This document shows, piece by piece, positions 10,707 to 41,446 of a stretch of DNA of 64,000 bases. The DNA lies in the NCBI RefSeq assembly GCF_001896135.2, contig NZ_MPOH02000018.1, positions 5,344 to 69,343 on the forward strand, given 5' to 3'. The first letter of the stretch is position 1. Every line of letters starts with the position of its first letter. The stretch comes from Streptomyces phaeoluteigriseus. GTDB lineage: Bacteria > Actinomycetota > Actinomycetes > Streptomycetales > Streptomycetaceae. A model generated the notes under the pieces. It had not been told where the DNA came from and made no database searches. It worked only from the letters and a program-made list of their open reading frames with translations. The translations under genes and the position numbers were made by a program.

Positions 10707-11066
10707 TCAGGCCTCCGCGAAATCACCCGCGAACGCCGAGGCGATCCTCAGGTGCGGGCCCGCCTCCGCGTGCCGTCCCTGCCGCTCCAGGGTGCGGCCC
10801 AGCATCAGGCGGGCGTACTGCTCCACCGGGTCGCGCTCCACGATGGCGCGCAACTCGGTCTCGGCACGGCCGAGTTGGGCCGAGTGGTAGTAGGCGCGGG
10901 CCAGCAGCAGGCGCGGGCCGGTCTGCTCCGGCACCTCTTCGACCAGCCCGGCCAGGACCCGCGCGGCGGCGGTGTACTCCTTGGCGTCGAAGAACAGCCG
11001 CGCACGCTCCCAGCGCTCGGCCGGTGTTCCGTGGGCGTAGTACTCGGTGTCGTAGGTGATGTCCAC
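10707..11066 (-). CDS. Tetratricopeptide repeat protein
   Basis: A 119-residue protein composed of about three helical TPR units. The recognisable blocks are AERWERARLFFDAKEYTAAARVLAGLVEEVPEQ, PRLLLARAYYHSAQLGRAETELRAIVERDP and ARLMLGRTLERQGRHAEAGPHLRIA. Such small TPR proteins act as cytosolic adaptors. It begins MDITYDTEYYAHGTP, a start commonly seen for this short actinomycete family. Partner unknown. Confidence 0.82.
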   Translation of the reverse strand: MDITYDTEYYAHGTPAERWERARLFFDAKEYTAAARVLAGLVEEVPEQTGPRLLLARAYYHSAQLGRAETELRAIVERDPVEQYARLMLGRTLERQGRHAEAGPHLRIASAFAGDFAEA

Positions 11067-11108
11067 TCGTGGCCTCCTTCGACCCCCTCAACCGCGCCCG
11101 ACAGCCGA

Positions 11109-11564
11109 CTATTCCGCCGGTCCGCCGGGCCGCATGGCGGCCAGTTCCGCGTCGGCCCGCTCGGTGATCCGGGCGAGCACCCGGCCGGCGACGGCCCGGT
11201 CCTCCGCGGAGATCCCGGCGTAGATTCGGGCCGAGATCGGGGCGGTCTCGGCGTTCACGGTGTCGTGGAGTGCGCGCCCGGCACCGGTGGCGCGGATGCT
11301 CTCTCCCTCGGCCGCCAGCAGGCCCTTGGCCAGCAGTTCCCCGATGACCGCGTGCACCCCGGCGGGGTCGGTCTTCAGGGCGCCGACGACCCGGCCGACG
11401 AGCGACTCGCGGCCGAGAGGCCCGTCGGCGACGGCCGACCGGAGGGTGATCTGCTGCGCGAACGTGACTCCGTGACGGCTCAGGACGTGTTCGAGGACGC
11501 CGCGGGCGGCGTAGTGGGCCAGGCCGATGACGCGGCTGTCGACGGGAGGTGCGGTGGTGGTCAT
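11109..11564 (-). CDS. MarR-like winged-helix protein, downstream of marR
   Basis: A 151-residue protein. The N-terminal half (LAHYAARGVLEHVLSRHGVTFAQQITLRSAV) and the recognition-like region (VHAVIGELLAKGLLAAEGESIRATGAGRALHDT) fit a winged-helix arrangement as in MarR-type proteins. The ATG overlaps the stop of the preceding marR gene by 4 bp, so the two are translationally coupled. It may be a second regulator or a heterodimer partner (inferred). Confidence 0.7.
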   Translation of the reverse strand: MTTTAPPVDSRVIGLAHYAARGVLEHVLSRHGVTFAQQITLRSAVADGPLGRESLVGRVVGALKTDPAGVHAVIGELLAKGLLAAEGESIRATGAGRALHDTVNAETAPISARIYAGISAEDRAVAGRVLARITERADAELAAMRPGGPAE

Positions 11565-12070
11565 GACTTCCCCTTGCTGCTCTCGTCCGTGATGGTCTTG
11601 ACCGTGCTGTCGTGCGGTGGTTCCAGGGGTACGTCGAGCAGGAGCGCGAGTTCGCTCGCGAACGTGCGGGTGCGGGCGCTGTCCAGGCCGCCGAGCGGTT
11701 CCGTCAGCTGTTCCAGCAGCCCGTGCACCACCCCGACGGCCCGCCGGGTGACGTCCTGCCCCTGCTCGGTGAGCGTCAGTTGCACCGCGCGCGGATCGCG
11801 CGGATCGCGGGTGCGCTCGATCAGGCCCGCGGACTCCAGGGCGCGCGCCAGTTTCGACACGTACAGCGGTTCGAGGCCGGTGTGGTCGGCGAGCCGCCGC
11901 TGGCTGGGGCGCTCACCGCCGCGCCGCATGCCGTGCAGTGACGCGAGGACCGCGTACTGCGCGTGGGTGAGGCCGAGCGGTGCCACCGCCCGGTCCACCG
12001 CCACCCGCCACTTCGTGGACAGCCGCCACACCAGGTATCCGGGCGTGGCTCCTGGAGAACCCTTTCTCAT
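11561..12070 (-). CDS. MarR family transcriptional regulator
   Basis: A 169-residue MarR protein. The winged helix reads LTHAQYAVLASLHGM, then RRLADHTGLEPLYVSKLARALESAGLIERTRDPRDPRAVQLTLTEQG in order, including the DPRD wing with its conserved Asp-Arg. The gene overlaps the following winged-helix gene by 4 bp. Three ATGGC-type direct repeats start at its own ATG and extend upstream, so autoregulation is likely. It is divergent from the GH5 glycanase. Confidence 0.9.
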   Translation of the reverse strand: MRKGSPGATPGYLVWRLSTKWRVAVDRAVAPLGLTHAQYAVLASLHGMRRGGERPSQRRLADHTGLEPLYVSKLARALESAGLIERTRDPRDPRAVQLTLTEQGQDVTRRAVGVVHGLLEQLTEPLGGLDSARTRTFASELALLLDVPLEPPHDSTVKTITDESSKGKS

Positions 12071-12110
12071 GGCCGATACAGTACATGGCGACTATGTCCA
12101 TGGCTACTAT
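12069..12110. promoter_or_regulatory. Three ATGGCnnnTAt direct repeats upstream of marR
   Basis: ATGGCCGATAC (12069-12079), ATGGCGACTAT (12085-12095) and ATGGCTACTAT (12100-12110) recur with a period of 15-16 bp. The first overlaps the marR start codon. Direct rather than inverted repeats would be unusual for a MarR dimer unless each is a half-site. Confidence 0.5.
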
Positions 12111-12160
12111 CGACCGGGACCCTTGACCGCGTTCCGTCAGAACTCTACGCTCCGGATGAA

Positions 12161-12179
12161 GTAAGTAAACTTTCCTAAC
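12161..12179. promoter_or_regulatory. Operator-like palindrome upstream of the GH5 gene
   Basis: GTAAGTAAACTTTCCTAAC is a 19-bp dyad with 7 of 9 pairs matching around a central C. From memory it resembles the GTTAGGAAA-N-TTTCCTAAC type operator found before Streptomyces chitosanase and other glycanase genes, which is bound by a ROK-family repressor (CsnR). It lies 40 bp upstream of the ATG. Confidence 0.55.
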
Positions 12180-12218
12180 AGATGCTCGCCTCCTCCTTGA
12201 CCCCACCGAGAGGACGTC

Positions 12219-13748
12219 ATGCGCGGATCCCTGTCAGCTCTTCTCGCCGGCGCACTGCTTGCCGGCCTCGGCCACGGCCTCGCCCCTTCCCCGGCGCTCG
12301 CCATCACCAGCGCGGCTGCCCCCACCGCAGGTGTCCGGACCTCCGCCCATCCGCAGTGGCAGCCGAACACGTCGTACACCGCGGGCACGCGAGTCTCCTA
12401 CGGCGGCAAGGAGTACGAGTGTCTGCAGAGCCACACGTCCCTGACCGGCTGGGAGCCCTCCAGCACGCCCGCCCTGTGGAAGTCGCTCGGTGACAGCGGC
12501 GGCGGCACCGACACGGCGGCTCCCTCGGCCCCGGCCGGCCTGCGTGCCACCGGCACCACCTCCTCCAGCGTGTCGCTGGCCTGGAACGCGTCCACCGACG
12601 ATGTGGGCGTGACCGGTTACGTGATGTACCGCGACGGCGCCCAGATCGCCACGACGACCGGCACCTCGCACACCGTCGGCGGCCTGTCGCCCAGCTCGGC
12701 GTACACCTTCACCGTCCGTGCCCGGGACGCGGTGGGCAACGTGTCGCCGGCCTCCGAAGCCCTCACCGCCACCACGGGGAGCGGCGGAGGCGGGACGGCG
12801 CCGGGCACCACACCCGCCGCGATCAACGGCCGGCTGAAGGTGTGCGGCGTGAAGCTGTGCAACCAGTACGGCAAGCCGGTCCAGCTGCGCGGCATGAGCA
12901 GCCACGGCCTCCAGTGGTACAGCCAGTGCCTGACCGACGGCTCCCTGGACGCGCTCGCCACCGACTGGAACTCCGACGTGCTGCGCATCTCCCTCTATGT
13001 CCAGGAGGGCGGCTACGAGACCGACCCCAGGAGGTACACCGACCGGGTGCACCAGCTCATCGAGATGGCCACCGCGCGCGGCATGTACGCCCTCGTCGAC
13101 TGGCACCAGCTCACCCCCGGCGACCCCCACCACAACCTGGCCCGCGCCAAGACGTTCTTCACCGAGATCGCCCAGCGCCACCGCGGCAAGACCAACCTGC
13201 TCTACGACATCGCCAACGAGCCCAACGGCGTCAGCTGGGCGCGGATCAAGTCCTACGCCGAACAGCTCATCCCCGTCATCCGCGCCCAGGACCCCGCCAC
13301 CCCGATCCTCGTCGGCACCCACGGCTGGGGCTCCCTCGGCATCTCGGACGGCCGTGACGAGACCGACGTCATCGGCAACCCGGTCCAGGCGACCAACATC
13401 ATGTACACCTTCCACTTCTACGCGGCCTCGCACGGCCAGGAGTACCTGAACGCGCTCGACCGGGCGTCGGACCGCATCCCGGTCTTCGTGACCGAGTTCG
13501 GTACCCAGGAGGCCAGCGGCGACGGCCCGAACAACTTCACCCGCACCCAGCAGTACCTCGACCTCATGGCGGCCAAGAAGATCAGCTGGGTCAACTGGAA
13601 CTTCTCCGACGACGAGCGCTCGGGAGCCGTGTTCAAAGCGGGCGTCTGCGGCAACAACGGCCCCTGGACCGGCACTGCTTCACTCAAGCCTGCCGGCGTC
13701 TGGATCCGGGACCGGATCAGGACACCGGATTCCTTCCCGACGGCCTGA
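12219..13748 (+). CDS. Secreted GH5 glycanase (cellulase type) with CBM5/12 and FN3 domains
   Basis: 509 residues. A signal peptide (to about residue 28, ending PALA) is followed by a chitin-type CBM5/12 module (about 45-88, WQPNTSYTAGTRVSYGGKEY...ALWKSLG), a fibronectin type III domain (about 101-185) and a Gly-rich linker. The GH5 catalytic domain follows from about residue 205. The acid/base Glu lies in YDIANEPNG and the nucleophile Glu in VFVTEFGTQ. It hydrolyses beta-1,4-glucan or a related polymer outside the cell. Pairing a CBM5/12 with GH5 suggests binding to chitin or mixed polymers. Control is probably by the upstream palindrome. Confidence 0.9.
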   Translation: MRGSLSALLAGALLAGLGHGLAPSPALAITSAAAPTAGVRTSAHPQWQPNTSYTAGTRVSYGGKEYECLQSHTSLTGWEPSSTPALWKSLGDSGGGTDTAAPSAPAGLRATGTTSSSVSLAWNASTDDVGVTGYVMYRDGAQIATTTGTSHTVGGLSPSSAYTFTVRARDAVGNVSPASEALTATTGSGGGGTAPGTTPAAINGRLKVCGVKLCNQYGKPVQLRGMSSHGLQWYSQCLTDGSLDALATDWNSDVLRISLYVQEGGYETDPRRYTDRVHQLIEMATARGMYALVDWHQLTPGDPHHNLARAKTFFTEIAQRHRGKTNLLYDIANEPNGVSWARIKSYAEQLIPVIRAQDPATPILVGTHGWGSLGISDGRDETDVIGNPVQATNIMYTFHFYAASHGQEYLNALDRASDRIPVFVTEFGTQEASGDGPNNFTRTQQYLDLMAAKKISWVNWNFSDDERSGAVFKAGVCGNNGPWTGTASLKPAGVWIRDRIRTPDSFPTA

Positions 13749-27299: not shown

Positions 27300-28744
27300 T
27301 CAGCGCGTGGCGAGCCGGGCCTGCGCGTCCCGCCAGCGCCCGGTCCCGCCCTGCGGTTCGTAGCGCGTCAGGGGCTGGGTCCTGGCGAGCAGCCCGCGCA
27401 TCGCGTGCCGGTCGCCGACCAGACCGTGCGCCCCGGCCTGCACGAGGACGTTGCCCAGCGCGGCGGCCTCCGTCGGGCCGGCCACCACCGGCAGCCCGCA
27501 GGCGTCGGCGGTGAGCTGGCACAGCAGCGCGTTGCGGGTGCCGCCGCCGACGATGTGCACGACGTCGACGGGGTGACCGGCCAGCCGCTGGGCGTCCTCG
27601 ACGGCCCGCCGGTGGGCGAGTGCGAGGGAGTCCAGGATGCAACGGGTCACCTCGGCGGGCGTGCCCGGAACCGGCTGCCCGGAGGCGCGGCACGCCTCGG
27701 CGATCCGCTCCGGCATCCGGCCCGGTGCCAGGAACGCGGCGTCCCCGGCGTCCACCACCGACCGCAGCGCCGGCACCGCGGCGGCGTCGCGCAGCAGCCC
27801 GCCGAGCTCCGGGTCGCCCCAGGCCCGCACGCACTCCTGGAGCAGCCACAGCCCCATGATGTTGCGGAGGTAGCGGACCGTGCCGTCCAGCCCCAGCTCG
27901 TTGGTGAAGTTGGCGGCGCGGCTGTCCTCGGTGAGGACGGGCGCGTCCAGTTCCAGGCCGGCCAGGGACCAGGTGCCGGTGCAGATGTAGGCGAAGCGCT
28001 CGCCCGTCGCCGGTACGGCGGCGACCGCGGACGCCGTGTCGTGCGACGCGACGGCCGTCACCGGCACGGGCCCGGTCAGCCCGGTCTCCTCCAGCACCGC
28101 CGCCCGCAGCATCCCGGCGGCGTCCCCGGGCCGCCGCAGCGGCGGGAACAGGCCGAGGTCGATGTCCAGCCGCGCGGCGAGGTCGTACGCCCAGTCGCGG
28201 GTCCGGGGATCGATCAGCTGGGTGGTGGAGGCGTTGGTCAGCTCGGTGCCCTGCTCGCCGGTCAGCCAGTACGACAGCAGATCGGGAACGAGCAACAGAC
28301 GCCGGGCGAAAGCCAGTTGACGGCTCTCGCGGGCCGCCGTGAGCTGGTACAGCGTGTTGAACGGCGCGTACTGCAGACCCGTCGCCGCGTACAGCTCGGC
28401 GGCCGGGACGCGTCCCCACACCTTCTCCGCGACGCCCTCCGTGCGGGCGTCGCGGTAGTGCACCGGGTTGCCCAGCAGGGCCCCGTCGGCGTCGAGCAGG
28501 CCGTAGTCCACGGCCCAGCTGTCGATGCGACGGAGTCGACCTGGCCGGCCGCCCGCAGCCCCTCCAGCACCCCGGCGTACAGGCCGAGCACGTCCCAGCG
28601 CAGCCCCTCCGGCACGCGCACGGGCCGGTTGGGGAAACGGTGCGCCTCGGCCAGCTCCAGCGAGTCCGGGGTGACGCGGCCGACCATCACGCGCCCGCTG
28701 GAGGCGCCGAGGTCGACCGCGGCGTACGACTTCACGGCCGTCAC
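27300..28744 (-). pseudogene. rhaB: Rhamnulokinase, single-base frameshift
   Basis: A FGGY-family kinase of about 481 residues that phosphorylates L-rhamnulose. The N-terminal frame from GTG 28744 reads AAVDLGASSGRVMVG (ATP phosphate loop) to GQVDSVA near 28527. The next frame continues SWAVDYGLLDADGALLGNPVHYRDAR, VASHDTASAVAAVP, TGTWSLAG and VHIVGGGTRNALLCQLTADA. Adding one G (GTCGCATC to GTCGGCATC) gives VGIDSWAVDYG, the normal sequence. The start overlaps the aldolase stop by 4 bp. A sequencing deletion is likely. Confidence 0.87.
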
Positions 28745-30780
28745 CGGAGGAACGCGGCCGCCACACCCGCGTCGACGGGGATGTGCAGTCCGGTGGTGTG
28801 GGTGAGTTCGCCGCCGGTGAGCGCGAAGACGGCGTTCGCGACGTGCTCGGGCAGTACCTCCCGCTTGAGGATGGTCCGCTGCGCGTAGAACTCGCCCAGC
28901 TTCTCCTCGTCCACCCCGTACACGGCCGCGCGCTTGGCGCCCCAGCCGCCCGCGAAGATGCCCGAGCCGCGCACCACGCCGTCGGGGTTGATCCCGTTGA
29001 CCCGGATCCCGTGCTCGCCCAGCTCGGCGGCCAGCAGCCGCACCTGGTGGGCCTGGTCCGCCTTGGTCGCGGAGTAGGCGATGTTGTTGGGACCGGCGAA
29101 GACGGCGTTCTTCGACGCGATGTAGACGATGTCGCCGCCCATCTCCTGCGCGATCATCACGCGGGCCGCCTCACGCGAGACGAGGAAGGAACCGCGGGCC
29201 ATGATGTCGTGCTGGAGGTCCCAGTCCTTCGCGGAGGTCTCCAACAGCGGCTTGGAGATGGAGATACCGGCGTTGTTGACCACCAGGTCGACCCCGCCGA
29301 AGGCGAGCGCCGCGGCCCGGAAGGCCTCGGCGATCTGCTCCTCGGAGGTGACGTCGACGGTCACCGCGACGGCCTTGTCCGGTCCGCCCAGTTCCTCGGC
29401 GACCGCCGCCGCGTTGTCCGCGTTCAGATCGGCGACGACGACGCACGCGCCCTCGGCGACCAGCCGGTGCGCGATCGCCCTGCCGATCCCGCTGCCCGCG
29501 CCCGTCACCAGCGCCACCCTGGTGGCCAGCGCCTTCGGCTTCGGCATCCGCCGGAGCTTGGCCTCCTCCAGCGCCCAGTACTCGATGCGGAACTTCTCCG
29601 ACTCCTCGATCGGCGCGTACGTCGACACCGACTCGGCGCCGCGCATCACGTTGATCGCGTTGACGTAGAACTCGCCGGCCACCCGGGCGGTCTGCTTGTC
29701 CTTGCCGAAGGAGAACATGCCCACGCCCGGCACCAGCACGATCGCCGGGTCGGCGCCGCGCATCGCGGGGGAGCCGGGCTCGGCGTGGCGCCGGTAGTAG
29801 GCGGCGTACTCCTCACGGTAGGCGGTGTGCAGCTCCTTGAGCCGCGCGACCGCCTCCTCCACCGTGGCGGTGGGCGGCAGATCCAGGACGAGGGGCCGCA
29901 CCTTGGTCCGCAGGAAGTGGTCCGGGCAGGAGGTGCCGAGCGCGGCCAGCCGCGGGTGCTCGGCGGCGGCCAGGAAGTCCAGGACGACGCCGGAGTCGTC
30001 GAAGTGCCCGACCTGCGGCCGGTCCTGCGAGGCGATCGCCCGCACGTACGGCGCGAGGGCGGCGGCCCGCTCCCGGCGCTCACCCTCGGGCAGCGCCCCG
30101 TAGCCCTCGACGACGGGCCCGAACGGGTCGGCCTTGCCCCGTTCCGCCAGGAACGCCTCCGCGGTGCGGATGATGTGCAGCGAGTTGCGCTCGCACTCCT
30201 CGGCGGTGTCTCCCCAGGCGGTGATCCCGTGCCCGCCGAGGACGCAGCCGACGGCCTGTGGGTTGGCCGCCTTCACGGCGGCGATGTCCAGCCCCAGCTG
30301 GAAACCGGGCCGTCGCCACGGCACCCACACCACGCCGTCCCCGAAACACTCGGCGGTCAGCTTCTCCCCGTCGGCGGCGCAGGCGAGCGCGATCCCGGAG
30401 TCCGGGTGCAGATGATCGACGTGGGCGGCGTCCACGAGGCCGTGCATGGCGGTGTCGATGGACGGCGCGGCGCCGCCCTTGCCGTGCAGACAGTAGTCGA
30501 ACGCGGCGACCATCTCGTCCTCGCGCTCGACGCCCGGATAGACGTCGACGAGCGCCCGCAGCCGGTCCAGCCGCAGCACGGCCAGCCCCGCCTCGGTGAG
30601 GGTCCCGAGGTCGCCACCGGACCCCTTCACCCACATCAGCTCGACATCCCCACCGGTGACGGGATCGGTGTCGGTGCCCTTGGCGGACGTGTTGCCGCCG
30701 GCGTAGTTGGTGTTCCGGGGATCAGCGCCGAGCCGGTGCGACCGGGCGACGAGAGCGGCGGCTTCGGGATGGGTGGTCAT
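28741..30780 (-). CDS. Bifunctional rhamnulose-1-phosphate aldolase / short-chain (lactaldehyde) dehydrogenase
   Basis: 679 residues. The first about 400 residues are a class II aldolase domain with zinc His clusters (HVDHLHPDS and GCVLGGHGITAWG). From about residue 425 an SDR domain follows: VALVTGAGSGIGRAIAHRL, NNAGISISKPL and YSATKADQA (active YxxxK). The family (RhaE/YuxG type) cleaves L-rhamnulose-1-phosphate to DHAP and L-lactaldehyde, then oxidises the latter to L-lactate. It sits between the isomerase and kinase genes and passes lactate to LutABC. Confidence 0.92.
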   Translation of the reverse strand: MTTHPEAAALVARSHRLGADPRNTNYAGGNTSAKGTDTDPVTGGDVELMWVKGSGGDLGTLTEAGLAVLRLDRLRALVDVYPGVEREDEMVAAFDYCLHGKGGAAPSIDTAMHGLVDAAHVDHLHPDSGIALACAADGEKLTAECFGDGVVWVPWRRPGFQLGLDIAAVKAANPQAVGCVLGGHGITAWGDTAEECERNSLHIIRTAEAFLAERGKADPFGPVVEGYGALPEGERRERAAALAPYVRAIASQDRPQVGHFDDSGVVLDFLAAAEHPRLAALGTSCPDHFLRTKVRPLVLDLPPTATVEEAVARLKELHTAYREEYAAYYRRHAEPGSPAMRGADPAIVLVPGVGMFSFGKDKQTARVAGEFYVNAINVMRGAESVSTYAPIEESEKFRIEYWALEEAKLRRMPKPKALATRVALVTGAGSGIGRAIAHRLVAEGACVVVADLNADNAAAVAEELGGPDKAVAVTVDVTSEEQIAEAFRAAALAFGGVDLVVNNAGISISKPLLETSAKDWDLQHDIMARGSFLVSREAARVMIAQEMGGDIVYIASKNAVFAGPNNIAYSATKADQAHQVRLLAAELGEHGIRVNGINPDGVVRGSGIFAGGWGAKRAAVYGVDEEKLGEFYAQRTILKREVLPEHVANAVFALTGGELTHTTGLHIPVDAGVAAAFLR

Positions 30781-30895: not shown

Positions 30896-32074
30896 TCACG
30901 CGCCCCAACCGGCCTGTTCCCCTCCCACCCGCTCAGCGGTGATCTTCTCGGCCCACCCGGACGCCTTGTACGCCTTGAGGGGCTCGGGGTCCAGCCCCAT
31001 CTCGCCCCGCACCTCACGCAGCAGCGGCCGTACATCGGTGTTGTACGCGTCCATCAGCACCGCGTTCGCCTCCAGCACGTCGCCGGACGCCTGCGCCGCG
31101 GCCAACGCCGACCGGTCGACCAGCAGAGCCTTCGCCGTGGCCTCCTGCACGTTCATCACGGACCGGATGATCGCCGGGATCTTCGCCTCGATGTTGTGGC
31201 ACTGGTCGAGCATGAACGCCACGTCGGAGTCGAACCCGCCGCCCCGGACGACCTCGTACATGATCCGGAACAGCTGGAACGGGTCGGCCGATCCCACCAT
31301 CAGGTCGTCGTCGGCGTAGAAGCGCGAGTTGAAGTCGAACCCGCCGAGCTTGCCCTCGCGCAGCAGCGTGGCCACGATGAACTCGATGTTGGTGCCGGGC
31401 GCGTGGTGTCCGGTGTCGACGACGACCTGCGCCCTGGGCCCGAGCTTGAGGCAGTGGGCGTAGGCGGTGCCCCAGTCCGGCACGTCGGTCGTGTAGAACG
31501 CCGGCTCGAAGAGCTTGTACTCCAGCAGCATCCGCTGCCCGTCCCCGAGCCGCTCGTACACCTCGGCCAGGCCCTCGGACAGCCGGTCCTGCCGGGCCCT
31601 GATGTCGTCCTGGCCGGGATAGTTCGTGCCGTCGGCGAACCACAGCTTGAGATCGGCGGAGCCGGTCGCGTCCATGATGTCGACGCACTCGAGGAGGTGG
31701 TCGACGGCCTTGCGGCGGACGGCGGCCTCGGGGTGGCAGATGCTGCCCAGCCGGTAGGCGTCGTCCTGGAAGGTGTTGGAGTTGATGGTTCCCAGCTTCA
31801 CCCCCCGGTCCTCGGCATGTTTCGCAAGTGCGGAGTAGTCCTCCACCTTGTCCCAGGGGATGTGCAGGGCCACGGTCGGGGCGACGCCGGTGAACTCGTG
31901 CACCTTCGCGGCGTCGTCGAGCTTCTCCTGCGGGGTGCGCGGCACGCCCTCCTGGGCGAACACCTTGAAGCGGGTGCCCGAGTTCCCGTACGCCCACGAC
32001 GGCGTCTCTACGGCCTGGGTCTTCAGCGCGGCCTTCACCGCGGCGAGGTCGGTCACTTGGGGCTCCTGTGACAT
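30896..32074 (-). CDS. rhaI: L-rhamnose isomerase
   Basis: 392 residues, a TIM-barrel metal-dependent isomerase converting L-rhamnose to L-rhamnulose. Metal and active-site blocks include [48 protein letters not shown] and [18 protein letters not shown]. It is the actinobacterial RhaI type, not E. coli RhaA. It is first in the leftward transcript, behind a strong TTGACA/TAGCTT promoter with an operator. A 115-bp gap separates it from the aldolase gene. Confidence 0.93.
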
Positions 32075-32119: not shown

Positions 32120-32167
32120 TGAAACGATTCAGAACGGGAAGCTATGAGCCTGCCGGGGGTGTGTCAA
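32120..32167 (-). promoter_or_regulatory. rhaI promoter and LacI-type operator
   Basis: On the minus strand TTGACA (32162-32167) and TAGCTT (32139-32144) are separated by exactly 17 bp. TGAATCGTTTCA (32120-32131), an imperfect dyad with TGAA/TTCA arms around CG, follows 7 bp beyond the -10 box, where bound repressor would block initiation. Confidence 0.75.
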
Positions 32168-32241: not shown

Positions 32242-32297
32242 TTGACGCGACATGGGCGTCGTGCCTAACGTCCCGGCAATCCAGTTGAAACCTTTCA
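32242..32297 (+). promoter_or_regulatory. Rhamnose transporter promoter and LacI-type operator
   Basis: TTGACG (32242-32247), an 18-bp spacer and TAACGT (32266-32271) form a good promoter. TGAAACCTTTCA (32286-32297), a dyad perfect except for the central pair, follows 14 bp after the -10. This mirrors the leftward promoter, so one repressor probably controls both arms. Confidence 0.75.
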
Positions 32298-33871: not shown

Positions 33872-34905
33872 CGGTGACCGCTCCCGAAGCCCCCGCCGCC
33901 GAGGTGTCCAAGGACGGCGGCACCCGCCTGGTGGACCGCGTCCTCAAGATGCGTGAACTGGCCATCCTGCTCGTCTTCCTGGTGATGATCGGCATCACCC
34001 AGGCCGGGAACAGCGAGTTCCTGTCCGAGCAGGGCATCAAGGACCTGCTGCTCAACGCGACGATCCTGGTCCTGGTCGCCACCGGCCAGTCCCTGGTCGT
34101 CATCACCCGCAACGTCGACCTGTCCGTGGGCTCCACGCTCGGCATCAGCGCCTTCGCCGCCGGCGTCTACCTCCAGGACGGCGGCAACCCCGTCGTCGCG
34201 GTCGTCCTCGCGGTCCTGCTCGGCATCGGCTTCGGCCTGCTCAACGGCCTCCTGGTCAGCCTCGGCCAGGTACCGGCCCTGGTCGTCACCCTCGGCACGC
34301 TGTACATCATCCGCGGCATCGACTCCATCTGGGTCGGCTCCCGGCAGATCACCGCGGCCGACCTCCCCGAGGGATTCGTCGACTTCGGCTCCGGCGGACT
34401 CTCCGCGGTGCCCTGGCTGGCGATGATCGCGCTCGTCGTCCTGATCGCCACCGCCTACTACCTCAAGCATTTCGGCAGCGGCCGCGAGCTGTACGCCCTC
34501 GGCTCCAACCCGGAGGCCGCCCGCCTCGCCGGCATCCCCGTCCGCAAGCGGATCCTCCTCGCCTACACCTTCTGCGGCGCCCTCGCCGGCCTCGCCGGAG
34601 CCCTGTACCTGGCCCGGTTCGGCAACGTCGACTCCGGCACCGGCAACGGCTACGAACTCACCGTCGTCAGCGCCGTCGTCGTCGGCGGAGTGGTCTTCAC
34701 CGGCGGCTCCGGCAGCGTCTACGGCGCCGCCCTCGGCGCCCTGCTGCTGACCTCCATCAACAGCGTGCTGCCCGCCCTCGGCGTCAGCTCCGTCTGGGTG
34801 CTCGCCATCAACGGCATCCTGCTCCTCCTCGCCATCGCCGTCGACCGCGTGGTCGCGCTGCGGGTGGCGTCGGCACTGAAGAAGAGGAACGCCCGCCATG
34901 CCTGA
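33868..34905 (+). CDS. ABC transporter permease (rhamnose type) 1
   Basis: 345 residues with about eight to ten hydrophobic segments. The family block [23 protein letters not shown] is present, and also [21 protein letters not shown] and [24 protein letters not shown]. It overlaps the ATPase stop and the next permease start by 4 and 8 bp, so the three are coupled. It forms the heterodimeric channel with the next gene product. Confidence 0.92.
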
Positions 34906-35920
34906 GTCCGGGTCCCTGGTGAATCGCGCCATCCGGTGGGACACCGTCGTGGGCGCCCTCCTGATCGTCCTGCTCCTGCTGTCGTTCTCCCTCGTGGACG
35001 GCTTCGGCAACGCCCTCAACCTGTCCTTCCTGATCGGCAACACGCTCCCCATCGCGCTGATCGCCCTGCCGATGACCCTGCTGGTCGTCTCCGGCGAGAT
35101 CGACCTGTCCGTCGCCTCCACGGCCGGCCTGTCCGGCGCGGTGATGGGCGCCCTGTGGAACCAGGGCATGACCATCGAGGCGATCATCCCGGTCTGCCTG
35201 CTGCTCGGCGTGGTCTGCGGCCTGGTCAACGGCCTGCTGGTGACCCGTCTCGGGCTGCCGTCGCTCGCCGTCACCATCGGCACCATGGCCGCCTACCGGG
35301 GCATCGCGCAGATCGTGCTCGGCTCCGACGCGGTCACCGACTTCCCCACCCAGTACCTGGACTTCGCGGCCGGACGCATCGGGGACACCTTCGTCCCGCA
35401 GGCCCTCCTGCCCTTCGTCGTGCTCCTCGCGATCGCCGTGGTCGCCCTGCACGCCACCCCGTTCGGCCGGTCGCTCTTCGCGATCGGCGCCAGCGAGGAG
35501 GCCGCCCGGTTCGCCGGCATCCGCGTCAGGCGCCAGAAGCTGATCCTGTTCACGCTGACCGGCCTGATGGCCTCCCTCACCGGCGTCTTCTGGGCCCTGC
35601 ACTACGCCAGCGCCCGCTACGACAACGCCACCGGCCTCGAACTCTCGGTCGTCGCCGCGGTGCTGCTCGGCGGCATCGACTTCGACGGCGGCAAGGGCAC
35701 CCTCGGCGGGGCCATCGCCGGTGTCTTCCTCCTCGGCGCGCTCCAGAACGTGATGAGCCTCCAGGACGTCTCCGCCCAGTCGCAGATCGTCGTCACCGGC
35801 GTCCTGCTCGTCCTCTCCGTGCTCGGCCCCCGGGTCGCCCGCCAGATCGCGGTCGCACGGGCCGGCCGGCGAGCCGCGTCGGCACCACCACCGGCCGGGA
35901 CACCCGCCCCGACCTCATGA
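34898..35920 (+). CDS. ABC transporter permease (rhamnose type) 2
   Basis: 340 residues, the second permease of the importer. MTLLVVSGEIDLSVASTAGLSG is the conserved membrane block, with GRSLFAIGASEEAARFAGIRV as the ATPase-contact loop and VVAAVLLGGIDFDGGKGTLGGAIAG near the C-terminus. It starts 8 bp inside the upstream permease gene. The C-terminal tail is Ala/Pro-rich. Confidence 0.92.
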   Translation: MPESGSLVNRAIRWDTVVGALLIVLLLLSFSLVDGFGNALNLSFLIGNTLPIALIALPMTLLVVSGEIDLSVASTAGLSGAVMGALWNQGMTIEAIIPVCLLLGVVCGLVNGLLVTRLGLPSLAVTIGTMAAYRGIAQIVLGSDAVTDFPTQYLDFAAGRIGDTFVPQALLPFVVLLAIAVVALHATPFGRSLFAIGASEEAARFAGIRVRRQKLILFTLTGLMASLTGVFWALHYASARYDNATGLELSVVAAVLLGGIDFDGGKGTLGGAIAGVFLLGALQNVMSLQDVSAQSQIVVTGVLLVLSVLGPRVARQIAVARAGRRAASAPPPAGTPAPTS

Positions 35921-35991: not shown

Positions 35992-37074
35992 ATGCGTAAG
36001 TCATCCCTCAGCCGCACCTGTGCGGCCCTCGCCGCCGTCACCTCCCTCGCGCTCGCCGCCACCGCGTGCGGCGGCACCACCAAGGAGGACGTGAAGAGCG
36101 AGAGCACCGGCGCCGCCGCCTCCGGCGGCAAGGCCGACCCGAACGCGGCCACCAAGAAGGGCCTGACCGTCGGCTTCCTGCCCAAGCAGGTCAACAACCC
36201 CTACTTCACCAGCGCCGACAAGGGCGGCGAGGCGGCCCTCAAGGAGCTGGGATCCAGCTACAAGGAGGTCGGGCCGTCCAGCGCCACCGACACCTCGGGG
36301 CAGGTGAGCTATGTCAACACCCTGACCCAGCAGCAGGTCGACGCGATGGCCGTGTCCGCGCAGGACCCGGGCGCCCTGTGCACCGCCCTCAAGCAGGCCA
36401 TGAGCAACAAGATCAAGGTCGTCACCTACGACTCGGACACCAACCCCGAGTGCCGCAACGCCTTCGTCTCGCAGGCGTCCGCCGAGGACCTCGGCCGCAC
36501 CGAGGTGCAGCTGCTCGCCGAACAGATCGGCTACAAGGGCGAGATCGCGATCCTGTCCGCCGCGCAGACCGCGACGAACCAGAACATCTGGATCGACTTC
36601 ATGAAGGACGAGCTGAAGGACCCGAAGTACAAGGACATCAAGCTCGTCAAGGTCGCCTACGGCAACGACGACGCCCAGCAGTCCTTCCAGCAGACCCAGG
36701 GCCTGCTCCAGGAGTACCCGAACCTGAAGGGGATCATCTCCCCGACCACGGTCGGCATCAAGGCCGCCGCCCAGTACCTGTCGGGCTCCAAGTACAAGGG
36801 CAAGGTCAAGCTGACCGGCCTCGGTACCCCCAACGACATGCGCAAGTACGTCAAGAACGGCACCGTCGACGCCTTCGAGCTGTGGGACCCGTCCAAGCTC
36901 GGCGCGCTCGCCGCGCAGACGGCCGTGGCCCTGGTCTCCGGCCAGATCACCGGCGCGGAGGGCGAGACCTTCACCGCCGGCGGCACCAGCCACACCATCG
37001 GCAAGGACGGCGTGATCAGCCTCGGCAAGCCGACCGTCTTCGACGCCAAGAACATCGACCAGTTCAACTTCTGA
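35992..37074 (+). CDS. rhaS: Rhamnose ABC transporter substrate-binding lipoprotein
   Basis: 360 residues. A lipoprotein signal (LALAATACGG) places the mature protein on the outer face, anchored through Cys at about residue 26. The periplasmic-binding fold of the autoinducer/ribose type shows GLTVGFLPKQVNNPYFTSADKGG, QQVDAMAVSAQDPGALC, VVTYDSDTNPECRNAFVSQAS and FELWDPSKLGALAAQTAVAL. These match the RhaS type. It is 71 bp downstream of the permeases. Confidence 0.92.
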   Translation: MRKSSLSRTCAALAAVTSLALAATACGGTTKEDVKSESTGAAASGGKADPNAATKKGLTVGFLPKQVNNPYFTSADKGGEAALKELGSSYKEVGPSSATDTSGQVSYVNTLTQQQVDAMAVSAQDPGALCTALKQAMSNKIKVVTYDSDTNPECRNAFVSQASAEDLGRTEVQLLAEQIGYKGEIAILSAAQTATNQNIWIDFMKDELKDPKYKDIKLVKVAYGNDDAQQSFQQTQGLLQEYPNLKGIISPTTVGIKAAAQYLSGSKYKGKVKLTGLGTPNDMRKYVKNGTVDAFELWDPSKLGALAAQTAVALVSGQITGAEGETFTAGGTSHTIGKDGVISLGKPTVFDAKNIDQFNF

Positions 37075-37091: not shown

Positions 37092-37412
37092 ATGCAACGC
37101 GTGTGCTTCCTGCTGAAGGTCCGGGCGGACCGCCTCGACGAGTACCGCGAGCGGCACGCCGCCGTCTGGCCGGAGATGCTCGAGGCGCTCTCCGCCACCG
37201 GCTGGCACAACTACTCGCTGTTCCTGCGCGAGGACGGACTGCTCGTCGGCTACCTGGAGACCGAGGACTTCGCCGCGGCCCAGGCCGGCATGGAGGCCAC
37301 CGAGGTCAACGCCCGCTGGCAGGCGGAGATGGCGCCGTTCTTCGAATCGCTGGACGGCGCCCGGCCCGACGAGGCCATGAAACCGCTCACCGAGGTCTTC
37401 CACCTCGCCTGA
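37092..37412 (+). CDS. rhaM: L-rhamnose mutarotase
   Basis: 106 residues, of the RhaM dimeric ferredoxin-like fold. MQRVCFLLKVRADRLDEYRERHAAVWPEMLEAL and GWHNYSLFLREDGLLVGYLETEDF are the family blocks holding the active Tyr and His. It interconverts alpha and beta anomers of L-rhamnose before isomerisation. It lies 17 bp after the binding-protein gene. Confidence 0.92.
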   Translation: MQRVCFLLKVRADRLDEYRERHAAVWPEMLEALSATGWHNYSLFLREDGLLVGYLETEDFAAAQAGMEATEVNARWQAEMAPFFESLDGARPDEAMKPLTEVFHLA

Positions 37413-37459: not shown

Positions 37460-38884
37460 ATGAGAAGACGCACGCTGCTCGGCGCGGCCCTGGCCGGTGC
37501 CGTGGCGACCCCCGCCCTCGCCGCCGGTACGGCACGGGCCGCCGACCCCGGCCCCTCGGTGACGAGGACCGGCACCACCACGCCCGACAGCCAGGCGATC
37601 TTCTTCGTCTCCTACGACGGCCTGGTCAACAACAACTCGTTCCAGAAGAACGCCCTGTTGACCTACAAGGGCTACCAGTACGCCGTCTGGTACACCGCCG
37701 ACCGCAACGCCGTCGTCGGCCGCCGCGTCCTCGGCGGCGGCACCTGGTCCACCGTGAAGGTCGGCCACACGCTGCGCTACAACGACTCCCACAACGTCAT
37801 CTCCATGGGCGTCTCCAAGGTCGACGGCCGCCTCCACCTCAACATGGACTCGCACAGCGACGGCTTCACCTACGTCAAGTCGGTGGCCGGCCTCCTCGAC
37901 AACCCGGCCGGCCTGAGCTGGACCGCGAGCCGCTTCGGCGCACCCCGGTCCACGCTCGACGGACTCGCGCTCACCTCGCAGTTCACCTACCCGCAGTTCG
38001 TCTCCACCCCCGACGGCAGACTCCAGCTCAGCTACCGGGTCGCCGTCTCCGGAAACGGCCGCAACGCCCTCGCCGAGTACGACGGCACCAGGTGGACCGA
38101 CCTCGGCGAGTGGTCGGCCTCCACCGGCACCTACACCAGCGAGCACGGCTCCAGCACGGCCCGCAACATGTACCTGCACGGCATCGACTACGACAAGAAC
38201 GGCCGACTGCACGCCTTCTTCACCTGGCGCGAGCAGAACGGCGCCGTGATGTGCAACGGCGGCGGCATCACCAACCACGACACCGGCTACGTCCACTCCG
38301 ACGACCGCGGCCGCACCTGGCGCAACGACGCCGGCACGGTCGTCGGCACCACCGGCGGCTCCGACAGGGTCTCCGTCACCGACGCCGGACTGGTCGTCGA
38401 CCCGCTCGACCCGGACCACTCCCTGATGAACCAGGAGAGCCAGACCACCGACTCGGCCGGCCGCCCGCACGCGATCATCAGCTACGTCCCCGGCCGCTTC
38501 GGCCAGTGCACCACCGACTACGTCGCCGACCGCACCGCGAACGGACGCGCCTTCCACGTGCGCAAGAACGCCTCCGGCACCTGGCAGAAGACCGAGATCC
38601 CGGTCCCGCTCAACTCCAGCCAGCGCACCAGGCTCGTCGTCGACAAGTACGACAACGCGTACGCGATCCTTCCGTTCGGCCGGATCGCCGGCGCCTCGAA
38701 GGCCTCCGGGCACACGGACTGGAGGCTGCTCTTCGACGGCGCCGGACTCAACGCCTTCGGCGAGGTCGTCATCGACGAGACCCGGATCGCGCAGGACGGC
38801 GTCCTGTCCGTCATGTACCAGGTCAAGTCGAGCGGAACGACCCCCTCGGCGCTCCACGTGGCCGATTTCCGGCTGCCCGCCTGA
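37460..38884 (+). CDS. Tat-secreted BNR-repeat beta-propeller protein, ulvan-lyase-like (PL24/PL25 type)
   Basis: 474 residues. The N-terminus MRRRTLLGAALAGAVATPALA is a twin-arginine signal. The rest is a predicted seven-bladed BNR-4 propeller. YNDSHNVISMGVSKVDGRLHLNMDSHSDG carries two His residues spaced about 20 apart, as for the catalytic His pair of PL24/PL25 ulvan lyases (recalled from family knowledge). TGYVHSDDRGRTWRND is a typical Asp-box blade. Its place in the rhamnose operon suggests it cuts a rhamnose-containing polymer outside the cell. Generic BNR or sialidase-like function is the alternative. Confidence 0.78.
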   Translation: MRRRTLLGAALAGAVATPALAAGTARAADPGPSVTRTGTTTPDSQAIFFVSYDGLVNNNSFQKNALLTYKGYQYAVWYTADRNAVVGRRVLGGGTWSTVKVGHTLRYNDSHNVISMGVSKVDGRLHLNMDSHSDGFTYVKSVAGLLDNPAGLSWTASRFGAPRSTLDGLALTSQFTYPQFVSTPDGRLQLSYRVAVSGNGRNALAEYDGTRWTDLGEWSASTGTYTSEHGSSTARNMYLHGIDYDKNGRLHAFFTWREQNGAVMCNGGGITNHDTGYVHSDDRGRTWRNDAGTVVGTTGGSDRVSVTDAGLVVDPLDPDHSLMNQESQTTDSAGRPHAIISYVPGRFGQCTTDYVADRTANGRAFHVRKNASGTWQKTEIPVPLNSSQRTRLVVDKYDNAYAILPFGRIAGASKASGHTDWRLLFDGAGLNAFGEVVIDETRIAQDGVLSVMYQVKSSGTTPSALHVADFRLPA

Positions 38885-38967: not shown

Positions 38968-39997
38968 ATGGCCCAGTCGGTGGGAATCAAGGACGTCGCC
39001 CGCGTCGCCGGAGTCTCCGTCGGCACGGTGTCCAACGTCATCAACCGCCCGGACACCGTGGCCACGGAGACCCGCGCACGCGTGCTGTCCGCGATCGACC
39101 GGCTCGGCTATGTCCGCAGCGAGTCCGCCCGGCAACTGCGCGCCGGACGCAGCCGGATCATGGGGCTGCTCGTCCTCGACATGGGCAACCCCTTCTTCGT
39201 GGACGTGGCCCGTGGCGCCGAGCGGGCCGCCCGGCAGGCCGGGCTCGGCGTCATGGTCTGCAACAGCGCCGAGAGCGCCGGCGAGGAGGCCGAGTACCTG
39301 TCCCTCTTCGCCGAGCAGCGGGTGCGGGGCGTGCTGCTCACCCCGGCCGACGCCACCGGCCGCAACATCGCCGCGTTCCGCCGGCACGGCATCCCGTTCG
39401 TGCTGGTCGACCGGGTCTCCGAGGGCACCACCGAGTGCTCGGTCTCCGTCGACGACGTGGCCGGCGGCGCGCTCGCCGTACGCCATCTCCTCGACGCCGG
39501 ACACCGCTGCGTCGCGTACGTCAGCGGCCCGCCCGGCCTCACCCAGATCCGCGACCGCCGCACCGGCGCCCTGAGCGCCCTCGCCGAGGCGGCCTGGCCC
39601 CGACTGCCTGCGTGAACTGCCCACCGAGCGGCTCGACGTGGCCGCGGGCCGGGACGCGGGCGCCCGTCTCCTCGGCCTGGCCGACCGCCCGACGGCCGTG
39701 TTCTGCGCCAACGACCTGCTCGCGCTCGGCGTCCTCCAGGCCATGTACGCGGCCGGTGTCAACGTCCCCGACGACCTCGCCATCGTCGGCTACGACGACA
39801 TCGAGTTCGCCGCCGCCGCGGCCGTACCCCTGACGTCGGTACGCCAGCCGGCCGTCACCATGGGCGCCCTGGCCGCCGACATGCTCCTGGAGGAGACCGA
39901 GGAGGGGCCCGGCGGCGGGGCGCGTGCGCACGAACACCGGCGGGTCGTGCTCCAGCCGGAGCTGGTGGTGCGCAGGTCCAGCCTGTCCTCGCGCTGA
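38968..39997 (+). pseudogene. LacI family regulator of the rhamnose cluster, two single-base frameshifts
   Basis: The N-terminal frame has a full LacI helix-turn-helix (IKDVARVAGVSVGTVSNVINRPDTV...RLGYVRSESARQLRAGRSR) and sugar-binding core to about residue 205. Near 39590 and 39600 one C each is missing, giving a premature stop. Beyond it the core continues ELPTERLDVAAGRDAGARLLGL, AVFCANDLLALGVLQAMYAAGV and VGYDDIEFAAAAAVPLTSVRQP to the stop at 39997. It lies at the end of the transport operon and is the likely repressor acting on the TGAAAC-type operators. The breaks look like sequencing errors. Confidence 0.85.
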
Positions 39998-40145: not shown

Positions 40146-41446
40146 TTGTCCGTCAGCTACCGCCAGCCCGGCGTCGTCCTCACCGACCGCCGCTTCACCG
40201 TGCCCCTCGACCACGCCGACCCGACGGGGGAGACGATCGAGCTGTACGCCCGCGAGGTCGTCGCGAGCGACAAGGCGCGGCAGGACCTCCCCTGGCTGGT
40301 CTACCTGCAGGGCGGACCCGGCTTCGGCGCCCAGCGGTTCGTCGGCCGGCAGGCCTGGCTGGACCGCGCGCTGAAGGAGTACCGCGTCCTGCTCCTCGAC
40401 CAGCGCGGCACCGGCAGCTCCACGCCCGCCAACCGCCAGACGCTCCCGCTGCGCGGCGGCCCCGCCGAGCAGGCCGACTACCTGGCCCGCTTCCGCGCCG
40501 ACTCCATCGTCCGCGACTGCGAGCTGGTGCGGAGCGAGGTCACCGGCGGCGCCCCCTGGACCGTCCTCGGCCAGAGCTTCGGCGGCTTCTGCGCGGTCAC
40601 CTACCTCTCCCTCGCCCCCGAAGGACTCGCCGCGGCCGTGATCACCGGCGGCCTGCCCTCGCTGGACGCCCACGCCGACGACGTCTACCGGGCCGCCTAC
40701 CCGCGCATGGAGCGCAAGGTCGCCGCGCACTACGCCCGCTACCCGCAGGACGTCGAGCGCGCCCGCCGGATCGCCGAGCACCTGCTCCAGCACGAGGTGA
40801 CTCTTCCCAACGGATACCGCCTGGGCGTCGAGGCCTTCCAGACGCTCGGCATCCTCCTCGGCAGCGGCGAGGGCAGCCACCGACTGCACTTCCTCCTCGA
40901 GGACGCGTTCGTGCCCACCCCGCGGGCCCCGCTCTCTCCGACGCCTTCCAGGAGGAGATCCAGGGCCTCCTGTCGTACGCGGCACACCCCCTCTACGCCC
41001 TCGTCCACGAGTCGATCTACGGCCGGGACGACCGGCCCACCGCCTGGTCGGCGGAGCGGGTGCGCGCCGAGTTCCCGCAGTTCGACGCGGCCAAGACCCT
41101 CGCGGGCGACGGACCGCTGCTGCTGACCGGCGAGACCGTCCACCCCTGGATGTTCGACCGCGACCCCGCCCTGCGCCCACTGCGCGAGACCGCCGAACTC
41201 CTCGCGGCCCGCACCGACTGGACCCCCCTCTACGACCCGGCCCGCCTCGCGGCCAACGAGGTCCCGGTCGCCGCCGCGATCTACCACGACGACCTGTACG
41301 TCGACACCGCGCACTCCCTGCGCACCGCCCGCGCCATCCGCGGCCTGCGCACCTGGGTCACCGACGAGTTCGAGCACGACGGCGTCCGCGCGGGCGGCCC
41401 CCGCGTCCTGGACCGGCTGCTGGCACTCACGCGGGACGAGGCCTGA
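40146..41446 (+). pseudogene. Alpha/beta hydrolase (proline iminopeptidase type), single-base frameshift
   Basis: A TTG start at 40146 after GGGAG fits best. LVYLQGGPGFGAQRF is the oxyanion-hole HGGPG-like block, LLDQRGTGSSTP follows, and VLGQSFGGFCAVTYLS holds the nucleophile Ser. Near 40924-40930 one G is missing (CGGGCCCC). The other frame then continues FQEEIQGLLSYAAHP in character and AAAIYHDDLYVDTAHSLRTA, ending at 41446. About 433 residues when joined. Family S33 aminopeptidase; the natural peptide is unknown. Confidence 0.82.

What the first reader, a model, noticed from the sequence alone, without database searches (positions are those of the whole stretch)
37460..38884. Tat-secreted ulvan-lyase-like propeller inside the rhamnose operon
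The protein has a BNR-4 propeller with the His pair spacing of PL24/PL25 lyases and sits between the mutarotase and regulator genes. Ulvan and other rhamnose-uronate polymers are its logical targets. A soil Streptomyces using a marine-type or plant rhamnose polymer would be unusual, and the true substrate could be a new one.
Basis: partly seen in the sequence, partly recalled or inferred. Interest (0 to 1): 0.65.

Follow-up and report, generated by a model that had tools for sequence, protein, structure and literature searches.

The report
Rhamnose-cap lyase in Streptomyces rhamnose operon
A secreted Streptomyces enzyme, built into the bacterium's rhamnose-eating operon, very probably clips rhamnose caps off plant arabinogalactan sugar chains, as a known gum-arabic enzyme from a fungus does, rather than digesting seaweed ulvan.

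Summary
The gene (37460-38884, +, 474 aa) is real, has a Tat-type signal, and lies between rhaM and the LacI-type regulator of a rhamnose operon. It is not a PL24/PL25 ulvan lyase. Closest in sequence and fold is FoRham1, the PL42 gum-arabic L-rhamnose-alpha-1,4-D-glucuronate lyase of Fusarium (phmmer 1.7e-29; profile 4e-63 against 1e-12 for PL24; Z 38.9 against 28.7 and 27.8 for PL24 and PL25). Twelve of 13 FoRham1 active-site residues are identical. The catalytic His of the GH145 rhamnosidase site on the other face is Tyr here, as in FoRham1. Most likely job: secreted exo-lyase that frees Rha from Rha-GlcA caps of plant arabinogalactan for the co-encoded RhaS transporter. Activity is inferred, not shown. 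The linkage is old: 93 of 98 matches in the genus sample directly follow rhaM. New details: a group of loci whose lyase lost its signal peptide, four of six with a broken Cys pair; repeated His/Tyr switching at the posterior site; a conserved operator-like palindrome in the rha promoter. New member of a known family; moderate interest.

The parts
37460..38884 (+). PL42-type lyase, 474 aa: Tat-type signal (about 1-27), propeller; F61, D109, H111, H132, Y177, R193, S197, Y238, R257, N324, Q325, R389, E435 = FoRham1 Y26, D83, H85, H105, Y150, R166, S170, Y202, R220, N275, Q276, R331, E381; Y69 = posterior-site position (BT3686 His48, FoRham1 Tyr34)
37092..37412 (+). rhaM, L-rhamnose mutarotase, directly upstream
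   Evidence: PF05336 E 1.2e-33; 66 bits, below the NCBIfam TIGR02625 cut-off of 99.6
35992..37074 (+). rhamnose ABC transporter substrate-binding protein (RhaS type)
   Evidence: TIGR02637 472 bits, cut-off 342
34898..35920 (+). sugar ABC permease 2
   Evidence: PF02653
33868..34905 (+). sugar ABC permease 1
   Evidence: PF02653
32354..33871 (+). sugar ABC ATPase
   Evidence: PF00005, two stretches; start chosen
32120..32131 (.). candidate RhaR operator TGAAACGATTCA in the divergent promoter; a weaker copy at 32286-32297
30896..32074 (-). rhaI, L-rhamnose isomerase
   Evidence: TIGR02635 669 bits, cut-off 531
28741..30780 (-). bifunctional rhamnulose-1-phosphate aldolase / short-chain dehydrogenase (RhaEW type)
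   Evidence: TIGR02632 1106 bits, cut-off 568
27300..28747 (-). rhamnulokinase; reading frame broken near 28.53 kb compared with a relative (start approximate)
   Evidence: FGGY domains; TIGR02627 406 bits, below the cut-off of 528; frame break
38968..39961 (+). LacI-family regulator (RhaR candidate); open frame stops at 39615; frame broken near 39.59 kb compared with relatives
   Evidence: PF00356 and PF00532; frame break

Best explanation
The protein is a secreted exo-acting PL42 lyase. It binds the non-reducing L-Rha-alpha-1,4-D-GlcA cap of type II arabinogalactan (plant AGPs, gum-type exudates, or the free disaccharide) in the anterior pocket of its propeller. R193, with H132 and Y177, neutralises the GlcA carboxylate; H111, tuned by D109 and H132, takes H5 and then protonates the leaving rhamnose oxygen (syn beta-elimination). 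Free L-rhamnose and a 4,5-unsaturated GlcA result. The rhamnose enters through the co-encoded RhaS-type ABC transporter and is used by RhaM, RhaI, rhamnulokinase and RhaEW. Shown here: family, fold, active-site identity, operon, conservation. Inferred: activity, mechanism by transfer from FoRham1, natural substrate, export, control by RhaR.
For: Best solved relative is FoRham1 (7esl/7esk), E 1.7e-29 over residues 56-472; profile E 4e-63; VIA Z 38.9, rmsd 2.7, 391 aligned. Twelve of 13 FoRham1 catalytic and subsite residues identical, against 129 of 376 aligned positions overall. In 130 distinct relatives the H85, H105, Y150, R166, Y202, R220, N275, Q276, R331 and E381 equivalents are invariant; D83 is D in 129 and N in 1; S170 is S in 129 and C in 1. 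Mechanism of FoRham1: PMC8377490 and PMC10951650 passages. Operon. Hints at arabinogalactan or rhamnosyl substrates: a 59%-identical paralogue in another genome of the genus (L146) is next to a GH30_2 gene with a GH43-CBM gene about 4 kb away, and one rha operon (L147) holds a GH78 rhamnosidase gene; the window's genome has a GH30_2 gene beside GH42 and an ABC permease.
Against: No activity data for a Streptomyces member were found in the papers searched. FoRham1 Tyr26, which hydrogen-bonds rhamnose O3, is Phe61 here; BT3686 and the B. ovatus protein 4irt also have Phe (alignment), and Bacteroides members release Rha from wine AGP but not gum arabic through the anterior site (PMC8406133), so the exact substrate may differ. 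PF14587 does not fix the substrate of the GH30_2 genes; the own-genome one gave only weak, below-cut-off NCBIfam hits to a xylanase and a beta-1,6-glucanase. The genome has no GH88/GH105 match (PF07470) to remove the unsaturated uronate; FoRham1's free product opens without an enzyme, which fits the disaccharide or plain cap-harvesting better than full AGP digestion. The GH79 search found nothing, but its controls also stayed silent. The other exact operator site in the genome lies at what looks like rhamnogalacturonan uptake and cleavage genes, not AGP genes. Of 149 genomes with a listed RhaM match, 48 show no lyase, so it is dispensable for a rha operon.
Confidence: 0.74

Rival explanations
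1. It is an ulvan lyase (PL24/PL25 type), cutting Rha3S-GlcA chains endo-wise.
For: Same fold and the same His-His-Asp and Arg/Tyr apparatus; PL24 and PL25 structures come next after PL42/GH145 in the VIA list, and PL24 is interleaved with one BT3686 chain in Foldseek's list. Phe61 in place of Tyr26 might leave room at rhamnose O3 (inference).
Against: PL24 lies far behind PL42 in the profile search (1e-12 against 4e-63) and PL25 gives no match at E up to 1; Z 28.7 and 27.8 against 38.9. FoRham1 shows only a trace on ulvan. None of the operon genes identified is a sulfatase (the genome was not searched for sulfatases).
Confidence: 0.06
2. It removes non-reducing-end rhamnose from rhamnogalacturonan I (Rha-alpha-1,4-GalA), as part of a pectin-centred RhaR regulon.
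For: The other exact operator site lies 36 nt upstream of a solute-binding protein gene, with a permease and, further downstream, a PcRGLX-like gene on the same strand. A one-mismatch site lies near a rhamnogalacturonan lyase gene, RhgB_N, but inside the start of the neighbouring reading frame.
Against: FoRham1, with nearly the same subsite residues, shows no detectable activity on RG-I oligosaccharides with Rha at the non-reducing end. GlcA needs syn and GalA anti elimination (recalled chemistry); one His as base and acid fits syn.
Confidence: 0.1
3. It is a GH145-type alpha-L-rhamnosidase working through the posterior face.
For: NCBIfam's only hit at 1e-5 is the BT3686 alpha-rhamnosidase model; 18 of 130 distinct relatives have His at the posterior position.
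Against: The window has Tyr69 there; 105.6 bits against an equivalog cut-off of 700. Bacteroides members lacking this His show no rhamnosidase activity on gum arabic (PMC8406133).
Confidence: 0.04
4. An exo Rha-uronate lyase, but for a substrate other than plant AGP, for example a bacterial or fungal exopolysaccharide with Rha-GlcA, or an O3-substituted rhamnose. (This shares the enzyme class with the best explanation, so the odds overlap and do not add to one.)
For: Phe61; two loops that FoRham1 lacks, with C265 and C350; Bacteroides relatives act on a Rha-GlcA form in wine AGP whose exact nature is not known.
Against: The other 12 listed rhamnose and GlcA site residues are identical to FoRham1.
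Confidence: 0.2

Closest known systems
FoRham1, L-rhamnose-alpha-1,4-D-glucuronate lyase, PL42, Fusarium oxysporum 12S (PDB 7ESK, 7ESL, 7ESN)
   Same: Fold, 12 of 13 active-site residues, Tyr at the posterior position, BNR_4 domain
   Different: 129 of 376 aligned positions identical; Tyr26 is Phe61; two extra loops with Cys265 and Cys350; bacterial, Tat-type signal, in a rhamnose operon
BT3686, BACCELL_00856, BACPLE_00338 (GH145, now PL42), gut Bacteroides
   Same: Fold; anterior lyase apparatus; Phe at the Tyr26 position in BT3686 and in 4irt
   Different: BT3686 has a second, posterior rhamnosidase site with His48; the window has Tyr69
PL24 ulvan lyases LOR_107 and Uly1; PL25 PLSV_3936
   Same: Propeller, His-His-Asp triad, Arg neutraliser
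   Different: Endo-type on ulvan with a deeper cleft (PMC8377490); far more distant in sequence
Actinomycetales RhaR (LacI) rhamnose regulons (PMC3870299)
   Same: RhaR-type control with RhaSTPQ-type transporter, RhaEW, and ramA/rhmA rhamnosidases (passages)
   Different: The passages read do not mention a lyase of this kind; supplements and figures were not read
SaRha78A, Streptomyces avermitilis GH78 (PMC4052742)
   Same: Releases Rha from gum arabic in Streptomyces (passages)
   Different: A GH78 hydrolase, another family; the window's genome holds two GH78-type genes elsewhere

Membership tests
PL42 | BNR_4 / seven-bladed propeller closest to FoRham1 | tested here: met
   model pLDDT 76, pTM 0.80, but residues 51-61 and 260-270 are below 50
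PL42 | Asp-His-His triad (D83, H85, H105) | tested here: met
   D109, H111, H132; in 130 relatives D 129, N 1, both His 130 of 130
PL42 | Arg166 neutraliser with Tyr150, Tyr202, Arg220 | tested here: met
   R193, Y177, Y238, R257, each 130 of 130
PL42 | FoRham1 rhamnose subsite Tyr26, Asn275, Gln276, Arg331, Glu381 | tested here: inconclusive
   4 of 5 identical; Tyr26 is Phe61, as in BT3686 and 4irt aligned
PL42 | Lyase activity on Rha-alpha-1,4-GlcA | not testable with these tools
   needs enzyme assay
PL42 | Match to the CAZy/dbCAN PL42 model | not tested
   no such library among the tools
PL24 | Closest sequence and fold relatives are PL24 | tested here: not met
   1e-12 against 4e-63 for PL42; Z 28.7 against 38.9
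PL25 | Closest sequence and fold relatives are PL25 | tested here: not met
   no profile match at E up to 1; Z 27.8 against 38.9
PL40 | Closest relatives are PL40 | not tested
   no PL40 reference was identified in any call
GH145 posterior-site alpha-rhamnosidase | Catalytic His48 on the posterior face | tested here: not met
   Tyr69
GH145 posterior-site alpha-rhamnosidase | NCBIfam NF052497 equivalog cut-off | tested here: not met
   105.6 bits against 700

The most novel reading that the evidence does not exclude
The rha-operon lyase has been moved across the membrane within the genus. In six distinct loci there is no room for a signal peptide after rhaM (55-63 nt from the rhaM stop to a fixed mature residue; the other 119 loci with rhaM have 128 nt or more), and four of the six have a broken Cys265/Cys350 pair (0 of 124 others). 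Three of the six have also lost most or all of the rhamnose ABC transporter genes. This suggests a switch from outside decapping plus rhamnose uptake to uptake of Rha-GlcA and cleavage inside the cell. Independently, the posterior (hydrolase) His comes and goes while the lyase site stays fixed, so some forms may be two-faced enzymes.
Probability: 0.4. Interest if true: 0.55.

Novelty: new member of a known kind. Interest (0 to 1): 0.4.

Why it matters
The characterised PL42 members that I saw in print are from one fungus and gut Bacteroides. Here the enzyme is wired between the mutarotase and regulator genes of a rhamnose operon, with a match in 103 of 295 genomes sampled from the window's genus (own genome and fragments included). 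That ties the family to rhamnose scavenging in soil and gives a simple test of who strips rhamnose caps from plant arabinogalactan. The signal-less group and the His/Tyr switching are natural experiments on where the enzyme works and on the odd two-site propeller.

Tried and rejected
Ulvan lyase, GH145 rhamnosidase and RG-I exo-lyase were considered and ranked as rivals (see there). A first structure prediction from the single sequence failed (pLDDT 34) and was not used; the second used 45 sequences (window plus 44 of the 80 related-loci loci) and gave pLDDT 76. Residues 51-61 (with F61) and 260-270 (with C265) are under pLDDT 50 in it. No distances inside the model were measured, so side-chain placement rests on sequence alignment plus fold match.

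A phage search gave 3 weak matches of 50,697 records, at most 27.7% identity and 61% cover, one a Klebsiella phage tail spike; plasmids gave 12 of 72,556 records, two of them Streptomyces. The region around the first Streptomyces plasmid hit has no annotated features and was not studied further. Nothing here points to a mobile origin. The GH79 search is not evidence of absence, since nothing rang in its controls.

Papers: PMC8377490 read as abstract, passages and sections 8 and 13; PMC10951650, PMC3870299, PMC4052742, PMC8406133, PMC8557816, PMC11475409 and PMC9120177 as passages; PMC13169297 only in a search listing; the 2017 PNAS paper on GH145 is not held, so other posterior-site residues could not be tested. 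Searches that showed no characterised Streptomyces PL42: (open-licence library; listings, not all papers opened). PMC8557816 (a rhamnose lectin) proved unrelated. PMC11475409 names PL42 in a pooled pectin row, so it does not show which strain has it.

Rows dropped before counts: one search left out the own-genome copies and eight distant loci (L138-L145, 25-34% identity in the best segment), which keep D, H, H, Y, R, S, Y, R and N but vary at the Gln276, Arg331 and Glu381 positions, and merged 146 loci to 130 distinct cores. One search left out the own genome and took 98 longer rows and 6 of 9 short rows; the RhaM list was capped, so 149 of 199 genomes with a match were used. The operator count used 91 intergenic regions, those where rhaI and the ABC gene are both held. 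The tree used 54 rows, the typical ones sampled, and a later held search found a better tree, so change counts are approximate. Most rows are close relatives and not independent; the Fisher value (1.3e-6) is descriptive only.

Full report
WHAT IS THERE. The open frame 37460-38884 (+) encodes 474 residues. It begins with a Tat-type signal (MRRRTLLGAALAGAVATPALAAGTARA); the twin-Arg pattern is in 80 of 80 named relatives. Pfam gives one domain above its cut-off, BNR_4 (1.1e-80). Upstream on the same strand are the sugar ABC ATPase, two permeases, RhaS and RhaM; downstream is a LacI-family regulator; divergently transcribed are RhaI, the aldolase-dehydrogenase RhaEW and a rhamnulokinase. RhaM ends 47 nt before the lyase. 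It is the only BNR_4 match at E up to 0.001 in its genome.

WHICH FAMILY. Against all solved structures the best match by sequence is FoRham1, the PL42 L-rhamnose-alpha-1,4-D-glucuronate lyase of Fusarium (1.7e-29), then the Bacteroides GH145/PL42 proteins (3.7e-16 and weaker); no PL24 or PL25 chain reaches E 1. A profile of 13 relatives gives 4e-63 for FoRham1, 1.4e-38 for BT3686, 1e-12 for PL24 Uly1 and nothing for PL25. A model built from 45 sequences (pLDDT 76, pTM 0.80) gives Z 38.9 for 7esk, 36.3 for BT3686, 28.7 for Uly1 and 27.8 for PL25. Foldseek's order is broadly the same: FoRham1 first, then GH145, PL24 and PL25, with one BT3686 chain among the PL24 rows.

ACTIVE SITE. With FoRham1 numbering offset by two from the chain index, 12 of the 13 residues named in PMC8377490 and PMC10951650 are identical in the window protein, against 129 of 376 aligned positions overall. 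The exception is Tyr26, which touches rhamnose O3 in FoRham1 and is Phe61 here; BT3686 and 4irt also show Phe. FoRham1 Tyr34, the position of the posterior-face His48 of BT3686, aligns with Tyr69. In 130 distinct relatives the catalytic set is invariant apart from one D83N and one S170C; the Tyr26 position is Phe in 127 and Tyr in 3.

HOW IT LIKELY WORKS. FoRham1 is an exo-lyase: active on Rha-GlcA (100%) and gum arabic (42%), trace on ulvan and larch arabinogalactan, none detectable on RG-I oligosaccharides (PMC8377490 section 8). Arg166, with charged His105 and protonated Tyr150, neutralises the carboxylate; His85 is base and acid; Asp83 bridges the two His (PMC10951650). By transfer, the Streptomyces enzyme should decap Rha-GlcA chain ends outside the cell and hand rhamnose to the RhaS transporter. 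That last chain is inference from gene order. The genome lacks a GH88/GH105 match, so it may take only the rhamnose.

LINKAGE. In 80 of 80 named Streptomyces loci RhaM and RhaS precede and LacI follows. In the genus sample, 93 of 98 longer lyase matches directly follow RhaM, median gap 46 nt. The five others are a contig-edge copy, one genome without a RhaM match, and three copies elsewhere. Five genomes keep only fragments of the lyase, all next to RhaM, which suggests decay in place; 48 of 149 genomes with a listed RhaM match show neither. Outside the genus, four genomes of one other family of the class (52-57% identity) have it beside rha genes. Four relatives at 36-38% in a further family (L138-L141) do not, but a 27% relative there (L145) lies beside RhaS-type transporter genes and a LacI gene. 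A 59% paralogue in another genome of the genus lies next to a GH30_2 gene with a GH43-CBM gene nearby, and L147's rha operon contains a GH78 gene.

REGULATION. TGAAACGATTCA lies at 32120-32131 between rhaI and the ABC gene. Sites within one mismatch of TGAAWCGWTTCA occur in 91 of 91 such intergenic regions (82 with this sequence as first match), against a mean of 0.08 and a maximum of 1 in 50 base shuffles of the set. Genome-wide the exact pattern occurs at two places, and at five with one mismatch allowed, two of them in this promoter. The other exact site is 36 nt upstream of a solute-binding protein gene, with a permease and a PcRGLX-like gene further downstream on that strand. This is probably the RhaR operator (inference); it fits the Actinomycetales RhaR regulons of PMC3870299.

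TWO UNEXPECTED PATTERNS. First, in six distinct loci (L120, L158-L162) only 55-63 nt separate the RhaM stop from mature residue 43, whereas the other 119 with RhaM have 128 or more; inspection shows starts close to or overlapping the RhaM stop and no signal-like stretch. Four of these six have a broken C265/C350 pair, 0 of 124 others. L160 has no transporter genes left between rhaI and rhaM, and L158 and L161 only remnants; the other three keep the transporter. The six may be one clade (held tree better, AU p 0.66) or two origins. Second, the posterior position is Tyr in 111, His in 18 and Cys in 1 of 130, with five His/Tyr changes on the tree found. PMC8406133 states that this His is rare outside gut species, which fits, but its repeated switching here was not expected.

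CAVEATS. I found no experiment on this protein. Most relatives are close and not independent. Compared with relatives, the window's rhamnulokinase and regulator reading frames are broken (about 28.53 and 39.59 kb), but so are two other genes at about 40.93 and 44.0 kb, so draft-sequence errors are at least as likely as real decay; the lyase frame is intact. PL42 is already named in a Streptomyces CAZyme table, so the family assignment is not new; the operon context, the signal-less group and the posterior switching were not seen in the listings and passages searched.

Noticed in passing
window 39591-39596, also about 28527, 40919-40931 and 43995: Reading frames of the LacI regulator, rhamnulokinase, an alpha/beta hydrolase and a further gene are broken compared with Streptomyces relatives; scattered over several genes, so probably draft indels, but a real rha-operon defect is not excluded.
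   Followed up: partly
L120/L133, L158-L162, N-terminus of the lyase: Lyase without room for a signal peptide, four of six with the Cys265/Cys350 pair broken; three of the six have lost most or all of the rhamnose transporter genes.
   Followed up: partly
position 69 of the lyase in 130 relatives: Posterior-face catalytic position switches between Tyr and His (five changes on the tree found) while the lyase site stays fixed; residues 69/72 are YY 101, HH 15, YH 10, HY 2, CH 1, HL 1.
   Followed up: partly
L177:5441-12102 (own genome, C7): Second exact operator site, in front of a solute-binding protein gene with a permease and a PcRGLX-like gene downstream: probable second RhaR target for rhamnogalacturonan.
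   Followed up: partly
L180:1501 and about 1640 (own genome, C8): One-mismatch operator inside the start of a minus-strand ORF, and a weaker palindrome-like stretch upstream of a rhamnogalacturonan lyase gene (RhgB_N).
   Followed up: no
L147:962-4147 and 10839-12284: In a divergent rha operon of the genus a GH78 rhamnosidase gene and a gene weakly like an arabinose-isomerase C-terminal domain (below cut-off) flank the transporter and lyase genes; similar gene spacing in L148 and L149 and, after the lyase, L153.
   Followed up: no
L011, L031, L035, L062, L070: Several loci come from species whose names mark them as plant-pathogen relatives (turgidiscabies, europaeiscabiei, stelliscabiei, caniscabiei, ipomoeae; pathogenicity recalled); the lyase operon looks the same as in the other named loci.
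   Followed up: no
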